DNA of 42,521 nt from a virus. The position numbers were made by a program, and so were the translations under genes. Below the pieces are notes generated by a model. It did not search any database. It was not told where the DNA came from and saw nothing but the letters and a program-made list of their open reading frames with translations. Location: IMG/VR virus record IMGVR_UViG_3300021170_000272, positions 1 to 42,521 of that record. One strand, written 5' to 3'. Below, piece after piece: positions 3,972 through 40,302 of this stretch. The stretch's first letter is position 1, and each line of letters opens with the position of its first letter.

Positions 3972-5048
3972 ATGACAAAAGAAGAAACGAAAGCATTGGT
4001 TGAGCGCGTGCGCAAGGCCAAGAACCGGGAAGTGATGTCGGAGTTCATCCGCATCGGGCAGTCGGACTTATATGATTGGCAGGAAACCCGCCGTGCGGTG
4101 CTGAAGGAGATCGCCTTCCTTCAGGTCAACGACGAACGGACCAAGGTGCCCGAAGGCAGCCCATATAAGGGCGACTACGTGGGCTGGTGCTACGCCAGCC
4201 AGAAGTTCATAGCATGCCGCGTGGGCTGCGGGGAACGCTGGGTCAGGGATTGCGTAGGGGTCTTCGAGCAGGACGGCGTCATCGAGACCCGCAGTTGGGT
4301 TGACCATCTGGGCTACCCGCACAAGGAATACCACGTGAAGGAAGACGTGGTGACGGCGCACCAGCGCCCCAAGGATTACCTCGAAGAAGGCCGCAACCGG
4401 CCGCAGCGCGGCGGCAACAAGAAAGCCAACGCCGGGTCGTTCAAGAAGGGCAACAAGGCTCGGAGCCATAGGAACAGTCAGCCGTTGCCACAGGAACAGT
4501 CAGCCGATAGCCATAGGAACGGTCAGGCGAATGCCATAGGAACTGTCAGCCGTGAGCCACAGGAACACCCAGCCGTTAGCGATACGGCTGACAGTTCCGT
4601 GAAGCCCGTTGTATTTCAGCCCGTAGCTCCGGTCGCTTCGCTCCCTGCGCATTCAGCGGGTTTCGTTTCTAGCGAGTCCAGTACAGCACGAGTAGAAGCT
4701 AGTGCCGCCGTGCGGCGGGACGGGCAAGGCTCTGCGGGTTGCTCGTCTAGTTCAAAAACTGAAAAACCCATGGGGTCTGTTGCCCAAGAGCGTAAGCCCC
4801 TGCCCAATAGGCTCTGCTACCCAGAAGCCTTCAAGGACTGGAAGCCCGGCATGCGGGTGCCCAAGTGCAAACGCTGCTCTGCCAACCTGCACCCCAACGA
4901 GAACCACGTCTGCGAAGGCTACGTGCCCCAGCTTCCGGCCCGCGACCCCGAGCTACGTGAAGCCCAGCACGACTCCATGCGACAGGAGATCAATGGCCGC
5001 CGCCAAGCGCGGCGTCAAGAGCTTGAGGTTCAGGACATGGAATTTTAG
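3972..5048 (+). CDS. Replication initiator protein candidate (lambda O-like layout)
   Basis: A 358-residue protein. The N-terminal third has a helix-turn-helix/wing-like region (about residues 70-125, YVGWCYASQKFIACRVGCGERWVRDCVGVFEQDGVIETR...YHV), comparable to phage replication proteins that bind the origin. A low-complexity middle (about 145-290, rich in Ser, Gln, His and Asn) follows. A C-terminal Cys/His cluster (CKRCSANLHPNENHVC) is likely to bind zinc. The middle is encoded by repeated DNA: five direct iterons and one inverted copy that change reading frame from copy to copy. The DNA is therefore the conserved element, exactly as when an origin lies inside an initiator gene. It is the first gene of the rightward operon. 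No ATPase or polymerase motif is present. The initiator role is inferred from HTH plus iterons. Confidence 0.65.
   Translation: MTKEETKALVERVRKAKNREVMSEFIRIGQSDLYDWQETRRAVLKEIAFLQVNDERTKVPEGSPYKGDYVGWCYASQKFIACRVGCGERWVRDCVGVFEQDGVIETRSWVDHLGYPHKEYHVKEDVVTAHQRPKDYLEEGRNRPQRGGNKKANAGSFKKGNKARSHRNSQPLPQEQSADSHRNGQANAIGTVSREPQEHPAVSDTADSSVKPVVFQPVAPVASLPAHSAGFVSSESSTARVEASAAVRRDGQGSAGCSSSSKTEKPMGSVAQERKPLPNRLCYPEAFKDWKPGMRVPKCKRCSANLHPNENHVCEGYVPQLPARDPELREAQHDSMRQEINGRRQARRQELEVQDMEF
4465..4599. repeat. Iteron array, candidate replication origin
   Basis: Five direct copies of a 20 bp repeat with consensus GCCAYAGGAACNGTCAGCCG begin at 4465, 4487, 4510, 4533 and 4556, i.e. spaced 22, 23, 23 and 23 bp (about two helical turns). 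A sixth, inverted copy (CGGCTGACAGTTCCG) lies at 4585-4599. The third copy ends GGCG and the fifth has ACCC for NGTC; the rest match closely. Spacing not divisible by three means each copy is read in a shifted frame, so selection appears to act on DNA. The arrangement resembles iteron origins of plasmids and lambdoid phages. Confidence 0.85.
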
Positions 5049-5309
5049 TCCTGACCCGAGGATAGACCGAAACCCTCATGCCATGCTCATCGCTCGCATT
5101 GCGAGCGTTACGCCCGTAAGGGCGAAAAGGAGCCGCTGGGTTAGCGGTCGTCAACCAATGCAACCACAAACACCAAAACAAACAACAACGGCCAACGGGA
5201 GGGAGCCCCGGCTCCCTCGTCCATCATTGCGAGGCATAGGCCTATGCCAACGCCGAAGTTTCCCGACTACCGGGTATCTAATTAGGAAGGCTTTCTAAGG
5301 CTAACGAAC
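5049..5309 (+). other. Hairpin-rich non-coding region with an A/C-only tract
   Basis: No convincing gene. Perfect inverted repeats follow one another: CGCTCGC-ATT-GCGAGCG (5091-5107), CGCCC-GTAA-GGGCG (5111-5124), CCGCT-GGGTT-AGCGG (5133-5147), GAGGGAGCC-CC-GGCTCCCTC (5199-5218) and the 16 bp palindrome GGCATAGGCCTATGCC (5233-5248). Between the third and fourth lies a strongly strand-biased tract (about 5160-5189) made only of A and C. It could be part of the replication region (for example a single-strand initiation or primase-loading site) or a structured leader RNA of the downstream operon. Confidence 0.5.
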
Positions 5310-5522
5310 ATGAGCGTATTGGACATACAACTGGAAGACGCCCGGCAGGCATTGCGGGCGAGCAAGAAGGGGCTGACAGTCAGCGGCCTCGGCAAGAAGA
5401 CGGGCATGCCCTACCACACGGCCTTCAAGGTCGTGCAGATGCTCCGGGTAGCGGGCGAGATCGAAGCCGCAGGATTCGTACCCACTGGCACGCATCAGGC
5501 GCAGGCATGGAGGCTGAAGTAA
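5310..5522 (+). CDS. Small winged-helix-like DNA-binding protein
   Basis: A 70-residue protein, essentially one predicted winged helix: helix (LEDARQALRASKKGLTVSGL), turn and recognition helix (KKTGMPYHTAFKVVQMLRVAGEIEAAG), then a short beta wing ending WRLK. This matches the shape of small MarR- or ArsR-like single domains seen in phage early regions. Its stop overlaps the next start (TAATG). It probably regulates transcription or assists replication; the specific family is not recognised. Confidence 0.6.
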   Translation: MSVLDIQLEDARQALRASKKGLTVSGLGKKTGMPYHTAFKVVQMLRVAGEIEAAGFVPTGTHQAQAWRLK

Positions 5523-5872
5523 TGCCGCCGCTAAAGCAAACGTTGGCCCCGGCGACGATCAAGCAGTACCGATGCCGCCTGCGGAGCGCCATCGCCGCTG
5601 GGCATGCGCAGCAGGCGGAATGGCTCACGAAAAGGCTTGGCCCGCATGCCGAGAACCTCGGACTCCGACGACCGAAGGGCGGCCCGCTCAAGCCCGTCAC
5701 AATCAAGAATTACAGCCAGCAATTGTGCAGCAGCCGCATCGCGCTGGAATTGATCGAAGGGGGCCACATGGAGCAATACCGCGAAAGCTGGCTGACCCCG
5801 GAATACGAAAGCGGGCTTAGGCAGGACATCGCGAGGCTCGAAGCCCGGCTGGCAGCACAGGAGAACGAATAA
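5522..5872 (+). CDS. Hypothetical protein, 116 residues
   Basis: ATG 5522 is preferred to ATG 5507 because GGAGG at 5508-5512 lies 9 nt upstream and the start overlaps the previous stop (TAATG). The protein has two similar TIKxYxxxL-type segments (APATIKQYRCRLRSAI and PVTIKNYSQQLCSSRI), which suggests an internal repeat of a helical unit. A C-terminal coiled-coil-like helix (LRQDIARLEARLAAQENE) follows. No family recognised; the arginine-rich helices could contact nucleic acid. Confidence 0.5.
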   Translation: MPPLKQTLAPATIKQYRCRLRSAIAAGHAQQAEWLTKRLGPHAENLGLRRPKGGPLKPVTIKNYSQQLCSSRIALELIEGGHMEQYRESWLTPEYESGLRQDIARLEARLAAQENE

Positions 5873-7770: not shown

Positions 7771-7803
7771 CAAACCCCCCACTCCCTCCCCGATGCCTGT
7801 ATT
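7771..7803 (+). repeat. Left arm of perfect 33 bp inverted repeat
   Basis: This pyrimidine-rich 33 bp sequence (beginning CAAACCCCCCACTCCC, ending GATGCCTGTATT) is the exact reverse complement of 9205-9237, 1.4 kb away. It covers the ATG at 7793 of the following gene and the place where a ribosome binding site should lie; no purine-rich site is present. The two arms bracket three genes. Confidence 0.9.
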
Positions 7804-8272
7804 TGAACTACGGGCTTCTCCTGTAGGCGACACATTCGCCCCGGAGGCTCCTTTGCACCCCGAAGTCCGCACCACGCTCGACAACCACGAAGCACAATTA
7901 TCAGAACTAAGCAACGAAATCCGCGCCACGGAAGACCGCGTCAAGGCGCATATCGACACGGAGACCCGTGGCTGGTTTGCGCAAGTGCTGGAGGGCATTG
8001 CCAGCCTGCGCGGCGCATTCGTAGACCGCCAGTCGGAGTTCGACGCACGGCTCGCCCAGCTTGAAGCCAAGCTCGACCATATCGACCGCTTTGGCTCGAA
8101 GTCGGGCCTCAGCACGTCCGAGGCATTGGGCAAGTTCATCACCGCAGTGCTCGAAGGCCGCATCCAGCGGCTTGAGGCGTTGGTGCAACAGTTGGAGTCC
8201 AACCTCCAGCCCGTCGATTTGCCCACTGGCATAAGTACGGCGTGCAATGCCCCGGAGCCCGAGGCGCAGTAA
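7793..8272 (+). CDS. Coiled-coil protein, unknown function
   Basis: A 159-residue protein dominated by heptad-like helices (LDNHEAQLSELSNEIRATEDRVKAHI, FDARLAQLEAKLDHIDRF, RIQRLEALVQQLESNL), so probably an oligomeric coiled coil. The first ATG lies inside the 33 bp inverted repeat and lacks a ribosome binding site. An in-frame TTG at 7853, with GGAGG at 7842-7846, is an alternative start giving a protein 20 residues shorter. It precedes the putative small terminase. Function unknown. Confidence 0.55.
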   Translation: MPVFELRASPVGDTFAPEAPLHPEVRTTLDNHEAQLSELSNEIRATEDRVKAHIDTETRGWFAQVLEGIASLRGAFVDRQSEFDARLAQLEAKLDHIDRFGSKSGLSTSEALGKFITAVLEGRIQRLEALVQQLESNLQPVDLPTGISTACNAPEPEAQ

Positions 8273-8709
8273 TGAGCGACGAGATAAAGAAGCCCGGCCC
8301 CCTGAGCACCGAGCAGGCCCGCGCCGCACAAGCCAAGGGCGTCATGCCCCGCGCCCACAAGCTCCGCCAGATGGCGCTGTTCCGCGAGCTACTGGAAGCC
8401 CCCGATGGCGAGATTGCGTCCGGGGAGCCCAACCGCACCCGGCTGGAATCCATATTCGCCATGGCGTGGAAGGTCTTGGTCACGAGCAAATCGAGCCGCT
8501 TCAAATTGAAAGCCGCCGATTTCCTGCTGAAGCACTCCTATGGCGAGGCTCCGCCCCTTAACATGGACGAGTTGCAGGGCAGGGTGCAGGTGATCAACAT
8601 CGCATTGCCCGAACTCCCTAGCGGCACACGCGTGGGCATTGCGCTCCAGACGCCTGACAAGCCGCTGCGCCCCGAGTTCGACGATGAGCCCCAATCCCAA
8701 GACATGTAA
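8272..8709 (+). CDS. Putative terminase small subunit
   Basis: A 145-residue protein; the ATG at 8272 overlaps the previous stop (TAATG). The mostly helical sequence (TEQARAAQAKGVMPRAHKLRQMALFRELLEAP, RTRLESIFAMAWKVLVTSKSSRFKLKAADFLLKHSYGEAPP) resembles in length and layout the small packaging or DNA-recognition proteins encoded just ahead of large terminases. A short beta segment (VQVINIALPEL) follows, as in oligomerisation regions. The call rests on position and general shape, because no unmistakable motif is visible; a different DNA-binding protein is possible. Confidence 0.45.
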   Translation: MSDEIKKPGPLSTEQARAAQAKGVMPRAHKLRQMALFRELLEAPDGEIASGEPNRTRLESIFAMAWKVLVTSKSSRFKLKAADFLLKHSYGEAPPLNMDELQGRVQVINIALPELPSGTRVGIALQTPDKPLRPEFDDEPQSQDM

Positions 8710-8956
8710 GAACGGCTGCGGCATGGCTCCCCGGCGCATTGCACGCGGGTATAAGAAGGCAGGCGGGGACCAGTCCCGTGGAGAGTTCTGCTCCATACGC
8801 TGCGCCAAGTCCTATGCCACCAAGGCGCGGCGCAAGGAGATCAGCGCCCGTGTGTCCCAAACAATGCTCGCCCGCCGCAAGAAGGGGCTGGCCGTCGGCG
8901 TGTACAAGGGACGAACCCCCACGTTCGGGGAATGGCTGCCCCGTATCAAAGCCTGA
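8684..8956 (+). CDS. Small basic zinc-finger-like protein
   Basis: A 90-residue protein overlapping the end of the preceding gene by 26 bp. The pattern C-x3-C...C-x3-C (TCKNGCGM...FCSIRCAKSY, about residues 7-43) suggests a four-cysteine zinc site, reminiscent of HNH-type or MYM-like fingers but without the catalytic His-Asn-His. The rest is very basic (KARRKEISARVSQTMLARRKKG), consistent with nucleic-acid binding. It is the last gene before the non-coding stretch upstream of the large terminase, so a link to packaging is conceivable. Confidence 0.5.
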   Translation: MSPNPKTCKNGCGMAPRRIARGYKKAGGDQSRGEFCSIRCAKSYATKARRKEISARVSQTMLARRKKGLAVGVYKGRTPTFGEWLPRIKA

Positions 8957-9204
8957 GGGCAATGCGCCCATAACACAGGACGCCGGGCGACGAGGCATGG
9001 CCACGCCATGCGCCCCGAACACGCAGGCGCAATGCACGCCAGACCCCGAGGCATTGCGCCACAGGGCACATAACGGAAGATCGCCTGTCCTGCGGGCTGT
9101 GGACGCTGGCACTGGGCACTATACGACGTAGCATGGCGTAGCCATGCACCCCGAGGCGCAGCCGCCGAAGGCGGCGAGCACGCCCGCCCGCAGGGCGGGC
9201 GACC

Positions 9205-9237
9205 AATACAGGCATCGGGGAGGGAGTGGGGGGTTTG
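9205..9237 (-). repeat. Right arm of perfect 33 bp inverted repeat
   Basis: Exact reverse complement of 7771-7803. On the plus strand it is purine-rich with G runs (GGGG, GGG, GGGGGG), so it might also form a G-quadruplex. In a transcript spanning both arms, the 33 bases could pair and loop out three genes while covering the 7793 start codon. Confidence 0.9.
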
Positions 9238-9403
9238 GCTGATAGTCGGGCACATGCCTCGGGCTCCGTGCCTCGGGCGCACCGCAAGGTGCGGCGGCAA
9301 CTAGGGTCTCTTTTTGGCTAAAACCGGCCCCCTATGACCCAATTTCGGCCGGGCACGGTTCGCGGCGGGGCGATGAGCCTCAATTTTTTATTTTCCGGGC
9401 ATA

Positions 9404-9437
9404 ACCTGACTTCGGGTCTCTCTGGTAGGAGACTCAG
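9404..9437 (+). promoter_or_regulatory. Terminase leader: hairpin over the ribosome binding site
   Basis: The start region GGAGACTCAGAT (9428-9439) is one of five exact copies in the window. CTGA (9407-9410) can pair with TCAG (9434-9437), and GTCTC (9416-9420) with GAGAC (9429-9433), which would bury the ribosome binding site. The upstream words AACCTGACTTC recur before the 25762 gene. Confidence 0.55.
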
Positions 9438-11129
9438 ATGGAAAACCCCTTTTCCGACCTCACGCCGCGCCCGGACTACCTGTCCGAAGATGGAACCCTC
9501 GACATCCTGAAGAAGTGGGAATGGAATCCCAAGCAGCTTGACCTCTACAACCTCTCCGTTCGCCAGATTTTAGCTGTAGGGGGCGTGCGATCCGGCAAGA
9601 CCGCTGGAGCGGAACAAGTCGGCATCCAGAAAATCCTGCTTCGCTACCCCAAGTCCAACGGCCTGATCCTCCGACGCACCTACAAGGAACTCAAGTCCGG
9701 CCCCATCGAAGACTTCCGCGAGCATGTGCCTCAGGAGCTTTACACCCTCAAGGAGTCCGACCTCACTGCCCATTTCGTTAACGGCTCGAAGCTCGTGTTC
9801 GGGCATTGCAAAACGGGCAAGGACCGCGACATCGAGCAGTACCTTGGCACTGCTTATCCCTTCATCCTCGTGGACGAATGCTCCCAGTTTTCCGCCGATG
9901 CTTGGACCACTTTGTTTTCCCGCAACACCGTCAATCCCGAATGCGAGCCCGACCGCACCCAGCCTTGCGGGGGCTGCGGCAATCCCCAGCAGTGCGGCTA
10001 CCCCTGCCTCCCTGATCCCATCTTCATGGGAGCCACCAACCCCTTCGGCCCCTTCTGGGACTACTACCACAGCCAGTTTGTTTTGAAAGAGCCTTACTTC
10101 CGGCCGGATGGCGCGAAGCGCGACCGCAACGGCAGGTATTGGATCGTGCAGGACGGCATCGATCCCCAACTTATCTTCGATCCCAACGATTACGGCTACG
10201 TGCACAGCACGGTTCTCGACAACCCACATGCCTTGAAGCGCGACCCCGGCTTGATCTCCCGCCTCAACATGCTTCCTAAAGGAAAGCGGGACAAATTTTT
10301 GCTCGGCTTGATGGACAAGGCGAGCGGCGTCTACTTCGAGTGCTGGGAGCAATCCACCGACGTCATCGACACCCGCCTCGATCCCGAGGCAATCATCTGG
10401 CAGCACTGGCAGCCCGTGTGGGGCGGCTGGGACTGGGCTATCGGCACGCACTGGAATACCTGCTACTTCTTCACCAAAGCGTTGGTCCGCAACTCCATCG
10501 GCGGGGAATACAGGCTCAAGACTATTTGCTTCCGGGAATACGTGACGCAGGGCAAGACCGACAGGGAGATGAGTGCTTGGATAGCGCAAACCCTGAAGTG
10601 GCCGGACACCGGGGAACTGATCCGCACCATCCATGCGATTTATTTTTCGCACGAAAAATTCGACCGCCAAGTCGGCGAGCACACTCCGGCCGACATGCTG
10701 AGCCAAGAGCTTATGGTCGTGGGCCTGCCCGGCGTGAGCCCCGCAGCCTCGAAGCCCGGCTCCCGCATTGCCCGTGCCTCGCTTATGTACCAGATGCTTG
10801 CCCACCGGGAACTCGTGATCCTCGACACCTGCACGGAGATCATCCGCGCTATTCCCAACCTCATGCGCAATCCCGACATTCTCGACGATGTTTTCAAGCC
10901 CAAGGGCGCGAACAAGGCTGACGACTGCTACGACGGATTTTCCTACGGCCTGTTCGGCTACTTCAATCCCGAGGAGAAGCCCGAGGAAATCAAGATGAGG
11001 GAAAAGCTTGCCTCGATGGACAGCTTCAACCGCCACCTTGAGATGTGGAAGCGGACCATGGACAGGAAAGCCGTGGACGAGATGCCGGAGCACCGGCCGT
11101 ATTGGCAGGACCGCAAAGAGGAGAAATAG
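9438..11129 (+). CDS. terL: Terminase large subunit (packaging ATPase/nuclease)
   Basis: A 563-residue DNA-packaging motor protein. The ATPase domain has a Walker A motif GGVRSGKT (residues 48-55), Walker B ILVDE (143-147) and motif III GATNP (198-202). The C-terminal RNase H-like nuclease part includes WGGWDWAIGT with Asp332, and a distal KADDCYDGFSYGL segment expected to supply further acidic residues. Five cysteines lie between Walker B and motif III (C169, C177, C180, C186, C190), which is unusual and may form a zinc-binding insertion. The start follows the shared GGAGACTCAGATG element. It leads the late, structural gene block and acts with the portal encoded after it. Confidence 0.95.
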   Translation: MENPFSDLTPRPDYLSEDGTLDILKKWEWNPKQLDLYNLSVRQILAVGGVRSGKTAGAEQVGIQKILLRYPKSNGLILRRTYKELKSGPIEDFREHVPQELYTLKESDLTAHFVNGSKLVFGHCKTGKDRDIEQYLGTAYPFILVDECSQFSADAWTTLFSRNTVNPECEPDRTQPCGGCGNPQQCGYPCLPDPIFMGATNPFGPFWDYYHSQFVLKEPYFRPDGAKRDRNGRYWIVQDGIDPQLIFDPNDYGYVHSTVLDNPHALKRDPGLISRLNMLPKGKRDKFLLGLMDKASGVYFECWEQSTDVIDTRLDPEAIIWQHWQPVWGGWDWAIGTHWNTCYFFTKALVRNSIGGEYRLKTICFREYVTQGKTDREMSAWIAQTLKWPDTGELIRTIHAIYFSHEKFDRQVGEHTPADMLSQELMVVGLPGVSPAASKPGSRIARASLMYQMLAHRELVILDTCTEIIRAIPNLMRNPDILDDVFKPKGANKADDCYDGFSYGLFGYFNPEEKPEEIKMREKLASMDSFNRHLEMWKRTMDRKAVDEMPEHRPYWQDRKEEK

Positions 11130-14807: not shown

Positions 14808-14853
14808 CTGACTCCTGTTAGTAGACGGGCAGCTTTGCCCGTAGGAGACTCAG
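14808..14853 (+). promoter_or_regulatory. Structured leader of the scaffold gene
   Basis: A hairpin ACGGGCA-GCTT-TGCCCGT (14825-14842) directly precedes GGAGACTCAGATG. CTGA (14808-14811) and CTCC (14812-14815) can pair with TCAG (14850-14853) and GGAG (14844-14847), sequestering the ribosome binding site. A further hairpin, CTACTGAC-TCCT-GTTAGTAG (14805-14824), competes with it. The opening words match the sequence after the GroEL stop. Confidence 0.55.
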
Positions 14854-16760: not shown

Positions 16761-16795
16761 CGAGATTCGACCGATAAATTTTGGAGACGCAGAAC

Positions 16796-18403
16796 ATGAA
16801 CGGCAAATTTCCGTCCTTCGCAAAGCGCATCAACCATGGCGCAGACTCACGTGAATCCATCCTAAAAGGCGTCAACATCCTCGCGGACCTCGTGGAATCC
16901 ACGCTCGGGCCGGGAGGCAGGTTCATCTGCATCCACCGCCCGATGTCCAAGCCATTCCTCACCAAGGACGGCGTGACAGTGGCACGGGAAGTGTTCCTAC
17001 AGGACGAGTTCGAGGACGCTGGAGCCCAAATGGTGAAAGACGTTGCGTCCAAAACCTGCAACGAGGCAGGCGACGGCACTACTACTGCCACCTTGCTCGC
17101 CCGCACTATCTATTCCGAAGGCTTGAAAGCCACAAGGGCCGGAGCCAACCCCGTGATCCTGAAAAAGGGCATGGATTTTGCTGTCTCGCACGCATTGGTC
17201 GCCCTGAAAAACCTATCCCACCAAGTCACCGACGAGGAAGTAGTCAAGATCGCCACGATCAGCGCAAACGGCGACGGGTTCATCGGCGGATTGGTCAGCA
17301 AGGCCGTGCTGAAGGTCGGCACTGACGGCGTCGTAGTAGTAGGCAAGTCCCATTCCTCGGAGACCAAGCTCGAAATGGTCGATGGCTGCCGATTCTGGCA
17401 AGGCTGGATCAACCCGTACTTCATCACCAACGCGGAGAGGCAGGAAGCCCTGTTGGACAACCCCTACATCTTGATTTTTGACAAGAAGCTGGTCGCTTTG
17501 CAGCCCATGCTTCCGTTTTTCGAGAAAATCGCCAAGCAAAAGCGGTCGGTCCTCATCATTGCGGAAAATATCGAGGGCGAGGCTCTCTCCATCCTTGTCA
17601 ACAACCGACAGGCGTTGCAAACCGTGCCCGTGAAGGCACCGGGATACGCCGTTGACCGCAGTACGCAGCTTGAAGACATTGCCATCCTAACGGGGGCGAC
17701 GGTAATCACCGATGCGTTGGGCTTGAGGCTCGAAGAGATCGGTTTTGAGCACCTCGGCAACGCCACGAGCGTCACTGTGGGCAAAGAGTTCACCACGATC
17801 ATCGAGGGCGCTGGCTCGCCCGCAAAAATCCAAGCCCGCATCTCCGAGCTTCGTTCCGCCGTGGACATGGAGCAGGACCAAGGGACCAAGGAGAAGCTTC
17901 AGGACAGGCTCAGCAAGATGAGCGGCGGTCTCGCCATCATCAGGGTGGGCGGTGCCTCGGAGCTTGAGGTAGAGGAACGCTGCTACCGGGTGGAAGACGC
18001 CATGCACGCTACCCGCGCCGCAATCGAGGAAGGAATCGTGCCGGGCGGGGGAGTTGCCCTGCTTAGGGTGGCACTCACGCTGGAACCCAAGGAATTGTGG
18101 GAAGGGAAGCACAAGGATTTCATGGCCGGATTGCGCATCGTGCAGGATGCCATGCTAATGCCCATCCAAAAAATTGCTTCTAATGCGGGATTTGATCCGC
18201 TGGAAGTGTTGTCCAAGGTTAGGTCTTTTACCGCCCACCCCAATTCAGGCTTCAATGCCCTAACCGGGGAATACGGCGATCTGAAGGATCAGGGCATCAT
18301 CGATCCTGCCAAGGTGGTCCGCAGTGCCTTGAGCAATGCAGAATCCATCGCATCCCTCATGCTGGTGACCGAAGGCATGATCGTGCATCCCATGGGCGAA
18401 TAA
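16796..18403 (+). CDS. groEL: GroEL-type chaperonin (phage-encoded Hsp60)
   Basis: A 535-residue group I chaperonin that folds proteins in an ATP-driven double ring. Family motifs are clear: TLGPGG, KDGVTVAREV, EAGDGTTTATLLAR (ATP and magnesium site, with the catalytic-type Asp of GDGTTT) and the C-terminal equatorial signature VEDAMHATRAAIEEGIVPGGGVALL. The C-terminal Gly-Gly-Met tail usual in bacterial GroEL is missing; the protein ends MIVHPMGE. GGAGAC lies 10 nt upstream of ATG 16796, so the longer TTG start at 16781 is rejected. It is encoded directly before the major capsid gene, with a GroES homologue just after, implying a dedicated capsid-folding machine. Confidence 0.95.
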   Translation: MNGKFPSFAKRINHGADSRESILKGVNILADLVESTLGPGGRFICIHRPMSKPFLTKDGVTVAREVFLQDEFEDAGAQMVKDVASKTCNEAGDGTTTATLLARTIYSEGLKATRAGANPVILKKGMDFAVSHALVALKNLSHQVTDEEVVKIATISANGDGFIGGLVSKAVLKVGTDGVVVVGKSHSSETKLEMVDGCRFWQGWINPYFITNAERQEALLDNPYILIFDKKLVALQPMLPFFEKIAKQKRSVLIIAENIEGEALSILVNNRQALQTVPVKAPGYAVDRSTQLEDIAILTGATVITDALGLRLEEIGFEHLGNATSVTVGKEFTTIIEGAGSPAKIQARISELRSAVDMEQDQGTKEKLQDRLSKMSGGLAIIRVGGASELEVEERCYRVEDAMHATRAAIEEGIVPGGGVALLRVALTLEPKELWEGKHKDFMAGLRIVQDAMLMPIQKIASNAGFDPLEVLSKVRSFTAHPNSGFNALTGEYGDLKDQGIIDPAKVVRSALSNAESIASLMLVTEGMIVHPMGE

Positions 18404-18593: not shown

Positions 18594-19928
18594 ATGGCTG
18601 CATTGCTTGAAGCATCAGTCGAGGCTATCGAAGTCGAAGCGTTTGCGAAAGAAATTCCAGACCTTATCGGCCATTTCGAGACTGCCTACAATCTTTTCAA
18701 GGACAACGCAACAGTTGTTCCTATCTCTTACCAAACCCTTGCAGGCGGCACGTCTCGCGGCTCGTTCCGTGTTCCGTTCCGTGTGCAGGGAGGCGCACCG
18801 CCCGTTCAGGCTTCCGGCGACCGTTCCTCAATGGGACCGGGCTCCGGGTCGAACTGGCAGGGCTTCGTGCTCTCTCCGGTCTTCCTCTTCAACGTATGCG
18901 AAATCAGCTACCTTGCGAAGAAGGCTACCGAGGGCAAGAACCGTGCTCTGTTCTCCGTGCAGGCTGCGGAACTCAAGAACACCCTCAAGACCTTCCTTAA
19001 CGGCCTCGAAGGACAGTTCAACTCGGATGGCTCTGGCCAGATCGACCAGATTCCTTCGACGGCAACCGTCTCCTCTTCGTCCGGCTCCGGCGCACAGACC
19101 AGCTTTATCTCTGGTTTGAACACCGTCGCAGGGTTCGTTGACCAACAGGTCATCAGCGTGTTCCCGTCCATCGGCGGCACGACCCGTGGTACCGCGACCA
19201 TCTCCTACGTGGACGTGGTCACGCAGACCCTCTTCTTCTCCACCGTGCTTCCGAGCACGGGCGGAGCCACCGCAATCAACGACTATCTAATGGTCAATGG
19301 CTCCAGCGGTGCGGCGGGTTCTTCCATCATGGGCATCCGCGCATGGCATGTGAACGGCAACACCGGAACCTTGGCAGGCATCAACCGCGCCAACTTCCCC
19401 AGCCGTATCAGCACGCCGACCATCAACCTTAACGGCGGCGCAATAACCCCCGGCATCGGGCTTCGTGCTCAAGTGCTGTTGGGTCGTGCGCTCGGGCCGG
19501 ATGCGGACTCCATCAAGGAATCCGTGTGGTACGGCCCCGCTGAGCAGGCTTACGCTGTCGGACAGTTGTTCTTCAACGTGAACCAAGCTCTACAGCGTCC
19601 GGGCGACTCTAACGACAAGCCTCTGGACATGAGCCGCAAGATGTTCCAAGAGCAGTTCGCTGGCCGCAAATACCACACTTCGTGGACTGCGCAGCCCAAC
19701 CGTGTTGACCTCCTTCACCTGCCGTCTTGGTATCTCGGCGAGCTTGTCTCCCCCGAGCTATACAACTTCGGCGATGCTGGCACGGTCGTCCCGGTTCCTG
19801 ACACCAGCACCTCGACGGGCACGTATTACACCAGCTTCATGTTCGCCTACAATGCGAGCTTGAACTTGGCATGCAGCGCCCCCCGTTTGGGCCTCTACAT
19901 CGGATCGGCTGCTGTTCCGAGCGTCTAA
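18594..19928 (+). CDS. Major capsid protein
   Basis: A 444-residue protein in the canonical capsid position, probably of the HK97 fold and forming the shell. It contains an N-arm-like helix (MAALLEASVEAIEVEAFAKEIPDL), a Gly/Ser-rich loop region (ASGDRSSMGPGSGSNWQGF), many beta segments and a conserved-looking C-terminal part (SWYLGELVSPELYNFGDAG...APRLGLYIGS). ATG 18594 is preferred because GAGG lies 9 nt upstream; an in-frame GTG at 18558 lacks a binding site and would add 12 residues. A strong terminator follows, as expected for the most highly expressed virion gene. The call rests on context and size; no unique motif is visible. Confidence 0.8.
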   Translation: MAALLEASVEAIEVEAFAKEIPDLIGHFETAYNLFKDNATVVPISYQTLAGGTSRGSFRVPFRVQGGAPPVQASGDRSSMGPGSGSNWQGFVLSPVFLFNVCEISYLAKKATEGKNRALFSVQAAELKNTLKTFLNGLEGQFNSDGSGQIDQIPSTATVSSSSGSGAQTSFISGLNTVAGFVDQQVISVFPSIGGTTRGTATISYVDVVTQTLFFSTVLPSTGGATAINDYLMVNGSSGAAGSSIMGIRAWHVNGNTGTLAGINRANFPSRISTPTINLNGGAITPGIGLRAQVLLGRALGPDADSIKESVWYGPAEQAYAVGQLFFNVNQALQRPGDSNDKPLDMSRKMFQEQFAGRKYHTSWTAQPNRVDLLHLPSWYLGELVSPELYNFGDAGTVVPVPDTSTSTGTYYTSFMFAYNASLNLACSAPRLGLYIGSAAVPSV

Positions 19929-20012: not shown

Positions 20013-20037
20013 GGGGCTCATGCCCCCGGAGACTCAG
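20013..20037 (+). promoter_or_regulatory. Leader hairpin of the GroES gene
   Basis: GGGGC-TCAT-GCCCC (20013-20026) lies one base upstream of GGAG (20028-20031) in the shared GGAGACTCAGATG start element, the same hairpin-then-motif order as before the scaffold gene. Confidence 0.5.
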
Positions 20038-20406
20038 ATGAACTCAGATACCGTCTTTATTGACCGCCGCACGTCCGTTGCGGAGGCATCCCCAGAACCA
20101 GACCAGAAGCAATACGAGCCTTTCCAGCCTCTCTTCGACCGCGTCGTCGTGCGCAGGATCAAGGAAGCTCCCAAGGACCACAGCTTCGCCATTCCCGAAA
20201 AATACCGCCAGCAAACCAACAAGGGCGAAGTCGTCTACGTGGGCACAGGCATGTATCTCGGCGGGGCGTGGCACCCCATTCCCCTGAAGCCCGGCGACAT
20301 CGTGTTGTTCGGCGAGTATGGGGCGGAGAAGTTTTTCATGGACGGCGAGGAGCTTGAGAGCATCTTCGTCGGCGACATCCGCGCCGTCAAGCGGCTGAAG
20401 GCCTAG
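20038..20406 (+). CDS. groES: GroES-type co-chaperonin (phage-encoded Hsp10)
   Basis: A 122-residue co-chaperonin that caps the GroEL ring. The core matches the Hsp10 family: FQPLFDRVVVRRI at about 28-40 (cf. LHDRV-type openings), a polar mobile-loop region, TNKGEVVYVGTG, LKPGDIVLFGEYGAEKF and the final EELESIFVGDIRAV. It is longer than typical bacterial GroES (about 97) because of a 25-residue N-terminal extension. The mobile loop (KDHSFAIPEKYRQQ) lacks the usual Gly-Gly-hydrophobic tripeptide, suggesting altered GroEL contact matched to the phage GroEL. The start is set by the GGAGACTCAGATG element; the longer upstream reading is rejected. Confidence 0.9.
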   Translation: MNSDTVFIDRRTSVAEASPEPDQKQYEPFQPLFDRVVVRRIKEAPKDHSFAIPEKYRQQTNKGEVVYVGTGMYLGGAWHPIPLKPGDIVLFGEYGAEKFFMDGEELESIFVGDIRAVKRLKA

Positions 20407-21125: not shown

Positions 21126-21157
21126 GCTACCCAGTCCAATAGTGAGGAGACTCAGAT

Positions 21158-22143: not shown

Positions 22144-22190
22144 CGGAGACTCAGATCGGCGTGGAAACACGCCTCGGGTCTCCGTTTTTA
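22144..22190 (+). terminator. Rho-independent terminator containing the late-leader 12-mer
   Basis: CGGAGAC (22144-22150) pairs with GTCTCCG (22178-22184), and GGCGTG (22158-22163) with CACGCC (22168-22173), loop GAAA, then TTTTTATTTT. The 5' arm is an exact copy of GGAGACTCAGAT, here without a start codon. Upstream, ATCTGAGTC (22093-22101) is the inverse of GACTCAGAT (22148-22156) and could pair with it as an antiterminator. Confidence 0.85.
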
Positions 22191-37850: not shown

Positions 37851-37900
37851 TTGCACCGCTGGGAATAGTTGCTATCATCCCCGATAGCAACTATTCCCAG
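37851..37900 (+). promoter_or_regulatory. Promoter overlapped by a perfect 18 bp inverted repeat (operator)
   Basis: CTGGGAATAGTTGCTATC (37859-37876) and its exact reverse complement (37883-37900) are separated by ATCCCC. A sigma-70-like promoter, TTGCAC (37851-37856) and TATCAT (37873-37878) with 16 bp between, is covered at its -10 by the repeat, so a bound dimer would block transcription of the methyltransferase and endonuclease. The methyltransferase's own ribbon-helix-helix domain is the obvious candidate for the binder. No T tract follows, so it is not a terminator. Confidence 0.8.
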
Positions 37901-39132: not shown

Positions 39133-40302
39133 ATGCCCTCGCCTATCTGCGAACTCGCAATTGCGGAAGCCCTGCGCGTCGGCAACGCGCTCCTGAAGTT
39201 CATCTCGCCCAACGATGCCGGGATCACCGGGGGGCACCAATGCGGCTTCTACCTGCCGAAGGCTGTCAGGGAAATGTATGCCCCGTTCGGCCCGGACAAG
39301 GGTCGGAACTACGAATCCCAAGTCGAAGTTCGTTGGCAGGAAGACCAGCTAGTCACAAATTCCCGCGTGAAGTGGTATGGCAAGGGCACCCGCAGCGAGT
39401 ATCGGCTGACCCGGTTCGGCAAAGGCTTCCCCTTCCTCACGCCCGAATCGGTCGGCGACATGCTTGTCCTCATTCCGTATGACCACCAAAGGTTCAAAGC
39501 CTATGTGCTCGACAATGACGAGGACATCGAGGAAATCCAAGCAGCATTGGGCGTCGATGTCACCGGGTTCTGGGGAGCCTACGAGGGAGGCAAGCCTCGG
39601 ATCGAAACCGAAAGCGAATGCTTGGAGCGGCGGTTCCGCGAGTTCATCAAGGACTTAGATGATTTTCCGACCGGGCTCGCATTCTCCGAGGAGACCGTCG
39701 AGGCCCTGAAGGAATGCGTCGAGCAGTTCGAGAAGCTGAACGCGGACAAGACCATCGTCAGGTGCGTGGATACGGAGTACAAGCTGTTTCGGCTGGCGGA
39801 GCGCCAGATTTGCCAGCCTGAAATCCTGAGGGTGTTCAAGGACGTGGACGACTTCCTCAAAACAGCGTCGAGCATCATGAACCGACGCAAGTCCCGTGCC
39901 GGGCGGTCGCTCGAAAACCACTTCGAGTATTTGCTGAAGCGGGCGGAGATTCCATATGCTGTCCGTCCGCCCGAGGTTGACGGAGAACCGGACATCGTCA
40001 TACCGAGCGTGGACGCATACAACGACGCACGCTATCCGACGAACAAGCTCTTCATGGTCGGCGTAAAGAGGACATGCAAAGACCGATGGCGTCAGGTGCT
40101 CAAGGAGGCGAAGCGGGTCAAGCAAAAGCACATCATGACGATCCAGCAGGGCATCTCGAAGAAGCAGTTGAACGACATGAAGGGCGACGGGGTGCAGCTA
40201 ATCGTCCCCCTTGAGTTCCACAAGCAGTATCCGCCAAACTCGGACATGAAGCTGCTTCAAGTAGGAGAGTTCGTCGATCTCGTGAGGAAGCGGCTGGCGT
40301 GA
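39133..40302 (+). CDS. EcoRII-type restriction endonuclease
   Basis: A 389-residue type II enzyme (EcoRII itself is about 400) that cleaves unmethylated CCWGG. The N-terminal half (to about 170; YRLTRFGKGFPFLTPESVGDMLVLIP) fits the effector DNA-binding domain of EcoRII. The C-terminal half carries the catalytic PD-(E/D)xK core: RSLENHFEYLL (Glu261), GEPDIVIP (Asp287), and VGVKRTCKDRWRQVLKEAKR (Lys312), the last being the most characteristic segment of this family. It lies between the methyltransferase and the Vsr gene, forming one operon. Two-site activation is known for EcoRII and expected here, but unproven. Reading frame and catalytic residues look intact. Confidence 0.9.
   Translation: MPSPICELAIAEALRVGNALLKFISPNDAGITGGHQCGFYLPKAVREMYAPFGPDKGRNYESQVEVRWQEDQLVTNSRVKWYGKGTRSEYRLTRFGKGFPFLTPESVGDMLVLIPYDHQRFKAYVLDNDEDIEEIQAALGVDVTGFWGAYEGGKPRIETESECLERRFREFIKDLDDFPTGLAFSEETVEALKECVEQFEKLNADKTIVRCVDTEYKLFRLAERQICQPEILRVFKDVDDFLKTASSIMNRRKSRAGRSLENHFEYLLKRAEIPYAVRPPEVDGEPDIVIPSVDAYNDARYPTNKLFMVGVKRTCKDRWRQVLKEAKRVKQKHIMTIQQGISKKQLNDMKGDGVQLIVPLEFHKQYPPNSDMKLLQVGEFVDLVRKRLA

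What the first reader, a model, noticed from the sequence alone, without database searches (positions are those of the whole stretch)
8957..9204. Array of 3-nt-loop hairpins upstream of the large terminase
Five perfect hairpins (two near-identical GCATGGC-N3-GCCATGC copies, GGCGCAATGC/GCATTGCGCC, GCCGCC-GAA-GGCGGC, CGCCCGCCC-GCA-GGGCGGGCG) stand in about 210 bp with no gene, right before the packaging ATPase. The repeated design is unlike the surrounding coding DNA and could be a packaging start site, a REP-like element, or a structured RNA with a packaging role.
Basis: partly seen in the sequence, partly recalled or inferred. Interest (0 to 1): 0.7.

Follow-up and report, generated by a model that had tools for sequence, protein, structure and literature searches.

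The report
Hairpin-rich spacer before phage terminase
A stretch of about 480 non-coding bases in front of a phage's DNA-packaging gene really does carry a cluster of unusually stable small hairpins, one of which, with a short sequence box, is shared with the only close relative found; it is probably a control element for that gene cluster, and a role in packaging is possible but untested.

Summary
The hairpins are real and far denser than chance: 8957-9437 (481 bp, non-coding) holds perfect hairpins at 8995, 9131, 9161, 9181 and 9278, plus a 10-bp stem with a 15-nt loop at 9026-9060. Four have C(GNA)G or C(GNRA)G caps on the + strand, a type nearly absent elsewhere in the genome. The only close relative found (G001, 45.7 kb, TerL 58%) keeps, in the same order upstream of terL, one of these hairpins (20/23 identical with its tail, one compensatory pair) and a box, TAGGGTCTCTTTnnGGCTA; most other hairpins are specific to the window. 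The box is conserved as sequence, not as structure. The strict motif shows no dispersed REP-like copies in 2.9 million viral contigs or 85,000 genomes, and no N4-type virion RNA polymerase was recognised. Most likely: a cis-acting, + strand control leader at the terS/terL junction. A pac site remains possible; nothing tested here shows packaging. By-catch: ~48%-identical terminase relatives carry a strongly covarying hairpin inside the first terS codons, absent here.

The parts
8957..9437 (.). non-coding spacer between the zinc-finger ORF / terS-like gene and terL, 65% GC (genome 59%)
   Evidence: negative codon scores in all six frames; ORF limits
8995..9018 (+). hairpin module 1: GCATGGC-CAC-GCCATGC plus tail GCCCCGA (24-nt near-copy of module 3; the three loop bases and the first tail base differ)
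9026..9060 (+). 10-bp stem GGCGCAATGC/GCATTGCGCC with 15-nt loop; contains GCAATGCACGCC (9029-9040), identical to the 3' arm and tail of the G001 hairpin
9131..9154 (+). hairpin module 3: GCATGGC-GTA-GCCATGC plus tail ACCCCGA; the module conserved in G001 (CATTGCGTAGCAATGCACGCCGA), one compensatory pair
   Evidence: 20/23 identical, score 14 against a maximum of 13 in 150 randomised spacers
9161..9175 (+). hairpin GCCGCC-GAA-GGCGGC, C(GNA)G cap, not found in G001
9181..9201 (+). hairpin CGCCCGCCC-GCA-GGGCGGGCG, C(GNA)G cap, not found in G001
9205..9237 (+). 33-nt sequence, purine-rich over most of its length, that is a perfect inverted copy of 7771-7803
7771..7803 (-). partner of the 33-bp inverted repeat, at the start of ORF 7793-8272
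9278..9293 (+). hairpin CGCACC-GCAA-GGTGCG, C(GNRA)G cap
9301..9396 (+). conserved box: core TAGGGTCTCTTTTTGGCTA (9302-9320), then CCCCC, GCGGGGCG and a T-run; shared with G001 5471-5560 (minus strand)
   Evidence: exact core pattern hits only G001 in all viral contigs; single copy in both genomes
9428..9437 (+). initiation box GGAGACTCAG directly before the terL ATG, shared by several late genes
8275..8709 (+). gene upstream of terL, taken as terS-like by position; very weak sequence likeness to the G001 gene at the same place
8684..8956 (+). 90-aa ORF with Cys motifs (weak FCS zinc-finger match, below cut-off), between terS-like gene and spacer
9438..11129 (+). terminase large subunit
   Evidence: phrog_979; Terminase_3

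Best explanation
The spacer is a cis-acting control region at the terS/terL junction. Shown: non-coding, hairpin-rich, strand-asymmetric caps, and a conserved two-part core (GTA-loop hairpin with tail; sequence box 9302-9320) in the same order in the one close relative. Inferred: it acts mainly in + strand RNA, as an intercistronic leader of the late (packaging and structural) operon. The sequence box would be a recognition or promoter-like site for late transcription; the hairpins, expanded from one module in G001 to two or three here, would insulate and stabilise the terL message and set its expression relative to terS.
For: Hairpin excess and fold z of -3.3 and -4.3. Caps C(GNA)G or C(GNRA)G on the + strand in 4 of 6 spacer hairpins against 1 of 35 elsewhere, Fisher 0.0007; that one other (22158-22173) also lies in the spacer before a late gene. 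The three best local matches between the two spacers are the hairpin with tail, the box, and GCAATGCACGCC. The box is single-copy in both genomes. Relatives at ~48% TerL identity keep an RNA-level hairpin in the terS 5' codons, so structure in messages of this locus has precedent in the family.
Against: Only one close relative exists in the collections, so covariation rests on one pair, and the outermost pair is broken in G001. Most hairpins are not shared. No sigma-70-like promoter was found and terminator-like sites are not above chance. More distant relatives have no spacer here.
Confidence: 0.4

Rival explanations
1. Packaging initiation site (pac or cos): TerS binds the conserved box, with hairpins or the flanking 33-bp repeats as accessory sites, and packaging starts here.
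For: Place between terS-like and terL genes; single-copy conserved box recognised by sequence rather than structure; the 33-bp inverted repeat flanks the terS-like gene; G001 has an Endonuclease VII-type HNH gene between box and terL, and HNH proteins near terminase genes are known in packaging (from general knowledge). The G001 contig closes on itself with a 127-bp overlap inside the portal gene, which fits circularly permuted DNA.
Against: No end mapping. Distant relatives have no spacer between terS and terL. Similar hairpins occur at 5049-5308. The 127-bp overlap may only be an assembler k-mer.
Confidence: 0.25
2. A REP-like or locally duplicating palindromic element with no selected role in the phage; copies arise by local duplication.
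For: Two near-identical modules and a third partial one here against one in G001; related GC-rich palindromes at 5091-5248; spacer richer in GC than the genome.
Against: No multi-copy family in any collection searched: one chance-level viral hit (L041) and one genome hit; 13 of 288 genomes of that phylum hold the bare hairpin, once or twice each. No REP-type transposase seen among the genes scanned. One module is conserved in place in G001.
Confidence: 0.2
3. Extruded DNA hairpins (as in N4 virion RNA polymerase promoters) or a replication origin.
For: In N4 the C-G closing pair and the G..A loop bases are needed for hairpin extrusion (PMC4496689); three hairpins here have exactly C(GNA)G.
Against: The only protein large enough for a virion RNA polymerase (1873 aa) matches a TIG domain and no N4 polymerase structure. 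GC-skew extremes lie near 6 kb and 38-40 kb, not here. Stem sequences and the bases around them differ between copies, unlike a promoter set.
Confidence: 0.08

Closest known systems
REP / REPIN extragenic palindromes
   Same: short GC-rich palindromes in a non-coding spacer, two near-identical copies, possible role in message stability
   Different: not dispersed, no multi-copy host family found, no associated REP transposase seen
N4-like virion RNA polymerase promoters
   Same: 3-nt-loop hairpins with C-G closing pair and G..A loop (PMC4496689)
   Different: no candidate polymerase; flanking sequence not conserved between copies; on a 42-kb non-N4-like genome
pac / cos packaging sites at terS-terL junctions
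   Same: place, single copy, sequence-conserved box
   Different: no known pac or cos sequence recognised; ends not mapped; spacer missing in more distant relatives
covarying hairpin in the terS 5' coding region of the ~48% TerL relatives (found here)
   Same: stable stem-loop at the terminase gene pair
   Different: inside terS codons with loops of 4-17 nt and no GNA cap; not detectable in the window or G001

Membership tests
REP element | many dispersed extragenic copies in a genome | tested here: not met
   two copies with tail in 42.5 kb, none dispersed; collections; the host genome itself unknown
REP element | imperfect palindrome of about 20-40 nt in extragenic DNA | tested here: met
N4-type hairpin promoter | C-G closed 3-nt loop with 5'G and 3'A | tested here: met
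   9131, 9161, 9181; criterion from PMC4496689
N4-type hairpin promoter | phage-encoded virion RNA polymerase of about 3500 aa | tested here: not met
   largest ORF 1873 aa, TIG domain, no polymerase match; PF00940 search uninformative because its controls were silent
N4-type hairpin promoter | conserved sequence from -17 to +1 around each hairpin | tested here: not met
   only modules 1 and 3 share flanks; 9161 and 9181 do not
pac/cos site | virion DNA ends or packaging series start there | not testable with these tools
   no reads available
pac/cos site | bound by the phage TerS | not testable with these tools
   needs protein
known structured RNA (Rfam) | match to a curated family above its gathering score | tested here: not met
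intrinsic terminator | GC-rich stem followed by U-run, above chance | tested here: inconclusive
   one weak site at 9367-9381, region total not above shuffles; a T-run is at the same place in G001

The most novel reading that the evidence does not exclude
The terminase locus of this phage lineage depends on a structured nucleic acid: in most relatives a covarying hairpin in the first terS codons, here and in G001 replaced by a hairpin module plus sequence box between terS and terL, acting in packaging or in setting the TerS:TerL ratio.
Probability: 0.15. Interest if true: 0.7.

Novelty: new member of a known kind. Interest (0 to 1): 0.42.

Why it matters
Most uncultured phages have no mapped packaging site or late-gene control. 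A spacer with a conserved hairpin and a sequence box next to terL gives a concrete place to test both, and the covarying hairpin found in terS of the wider family suggests that RNA structure at terminase genes may be under selection more widely.

Tried and rejected
Hidden gene in the spacer: all ORFs there, including the 8946-9287 minus ORF that starts in the 33-bp repeat, score as non-coding. Rfam families: none; two sub-threshold CRISPR-repeat matches are palindrome noise. DNA similarity in phages and plasmids: only short chance matches to the GC palindromes. L041, the sole other viral contig with hairpin+tail, carries unrelated genes whose products resemble those of P2-type phages and shares no other likeness with the window: taken as chance. 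A Victivallales hit (L053) is a single copy: chance level. Prophage or host by TerL in genomes: nothing found. A MAFFT global alignment of the two spacers placed the conserved hairpins out of register; ungapped local comparison was used instead. Box as RNA structure: no (z 0.17 and 1.63). One search failed for the relatives because alignment rows bore locus names; repeated correctly. PF00940 search tells nothing.

Full report
Setting. The window is a 42,521-bp IMG/VR phage record. It encodes TerL at 9438-11129, a gene at 8275-8709 in the terS position, GroEL at 16781-18403, and a putative major capsid protein at 18594-19928, so named from its place in the late gene order because no family matched it. 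No phage record is similar at the DNA level; TerL relatives among named phages are at about 25% identity or less.

Observation. One of the five has a 15-nt loop. The density is far above chance by shuffles and by comparison with the rest of the genome. The spacer is non-coding, 481 bp long and richer in GC than the genome.

Strand. Four of six spacer hairpin hits have a C(GNA)G or C(GNRA)G cap when read on the + strand, against 1 of 35 elsewhere in the window (Fisher 0.0007); none has it on the minus strand. Such caps stabilise both RNA and single-stranded DNA, so they point to the + strand but do not tell RNA from DNA. N4 promoter hairpins need just this cap for extrusion from DNA (PMC4496689). 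The classification was made after seeing the loops, so the P value is indicative.

Relatives. TerL scans gave 38 contigs at 44-48% identity. In the 25 loci where a terS-like ORF could be read it runs up to terL with no spacer, and no such hairpins stand before terL in any of the loci examined. One closer relative came from the capsid protein: G001, 45,722 bp, capsid 75-76% and TerL 58% identical, with a 127-bp end overlap inside the portal-like gene. Two further scans with alignments found only G001. G001 has a spacer after its terS-like gene, then an Endonuclease VII-type HNH gene, then terL.

Conserved core. Ungapped comparison of the two spacers gave as best matches: window 9132-9154 with G001 40060-40082 (CATGGCGTAGCCATGCACCCCGA / CATTGCGTAGCAATGCACGCCGA, 20 of 23; two of the three differences are a compensatory G-C to T-A change); window 9302-9320 with 40164-40182 (TAGGGTCTCTTTTTGGCTA / TAGGGTCTCTTTCCGGCTA, 17 of 19); and GCAATGCACGCC at 9029-9040. 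In 150 randomised spacers the best score was 13 and the 95th percentile 11; these three scored 14, 13 and 12. Both main elements are single-copy and in the same order (the hairpin with tail occurs twice in the window). So the window seems to hold an expanded version of a module present once in G001. The box is not unusually structured (z 0.17 and 1.63), so it is kept as sequence. In all viral contigs its exact core pattern hits only G001.

What it is not. Hairpin plus tail is not a dispersed repeat in the collections, and the bare hairpin is at most two copies per genome among 288 genomes of one phylum. No Rfam family matches. No virion RNA polymerase was recognised. The cumulative GC skew does not turn at the spacer in either genome.

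How it works. Committed reading (confidence 0.4): a control leader at the terS/terL junction, with a sequence-recognised box and + strand hairpins acting in the late message. Shown: non-coding, structured, strand-biased, core conserved in place. Inferred: transcription through it, and the roles of box and hairpins. A pac site (0.25) is the main rival; position and single-copy box favour it, the lack of the spacer in wider relatives and the second hairpin cluster at 5049-5308 weigh against it.

By-catch on the same theme. In 13 of 14 representatives of the ~48% relatives the first 90 nt of the terS-like gene hold a stem-loop stronger than expected from synonymous codon shuffling (mean z -3.09 over all 14; control stretches of the same genes -0.41 to +0.49). 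On the alignment the stem has 78% standard pairs and a covariation score of 0.389 against 0.210 +/- 0.031 shuffled and 0.17 at best when slid. The window and G001 lack it (z +0.88 and +1.30). The structure was derived from these sequences, and the rows are related, so the counts lean in its favour; the codon shuffle does not depend on the alignment.

Limits. Two genomes carry the core; the host is unknown; no reads or transcripts were available; gene names other than TerL and GroEL rest on position or weak matches.

Noticed in passing
L007:9463-9558, L011:6788-6883, L012:2076-2171, L036:9423-9518, L037:9439-9534 and others: A covarying 9-12-bp hairpin in the first codons of the terS-like gene in TerL relatives; mean synonymous-shuffle z -3.1 against about 0 in control stretches.
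   Followed up: partly
window 7771-7803 and 9205-9237: A perfect 33-bp inverted repeat flanking 1401 bp with three genes including the terS-like gene; both copies carry an inward-facing ATG. Could allow inversion, be a binding-site pair, or be an assembly product.
   Followed up: no
window 9428-9437, 14844-14853, 20028-20037, 21146-21155, 22145-22154; G001 also: A shared box GGAGACTCAG before several late genes in both genomes; distant relatives have ACTCAG at the terL and terS starts. A conserved spacer after the Shine-Dalgarno sequence is unusual.
   Followed up: partly
window 16781-18403: Phage-encoded GroEL-like chaperonin (phrog_5725); a short ORF near 20035-20406 may be its GroES, not tested.
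   Followed up: no
window 5049-5308: Second spacer with four hairpins (5091, 5111, 5199, 5233), one with a GTAA cap.
   Followed up: partly
window 37859-37900: Perfect 18-bp stem with 6-nt loop, near the low end of the cumulative GC skew; possible origin or terminator.
   Followed up: no
window 4464-4584: 23-bp tandem repeat, 5.3 copies, inside ORF 3972-5048.
   Followed up: no
L048:6930-7060: Repeats of AGAGTGCCGTGCA next to a Prim-Pol/AAA gene in G001.
   Followed up: no
L048:4974-5423: Endonuclease VII-type HNH gene between the conserved box and terL in G001, where the window has none.
   Followed up: no
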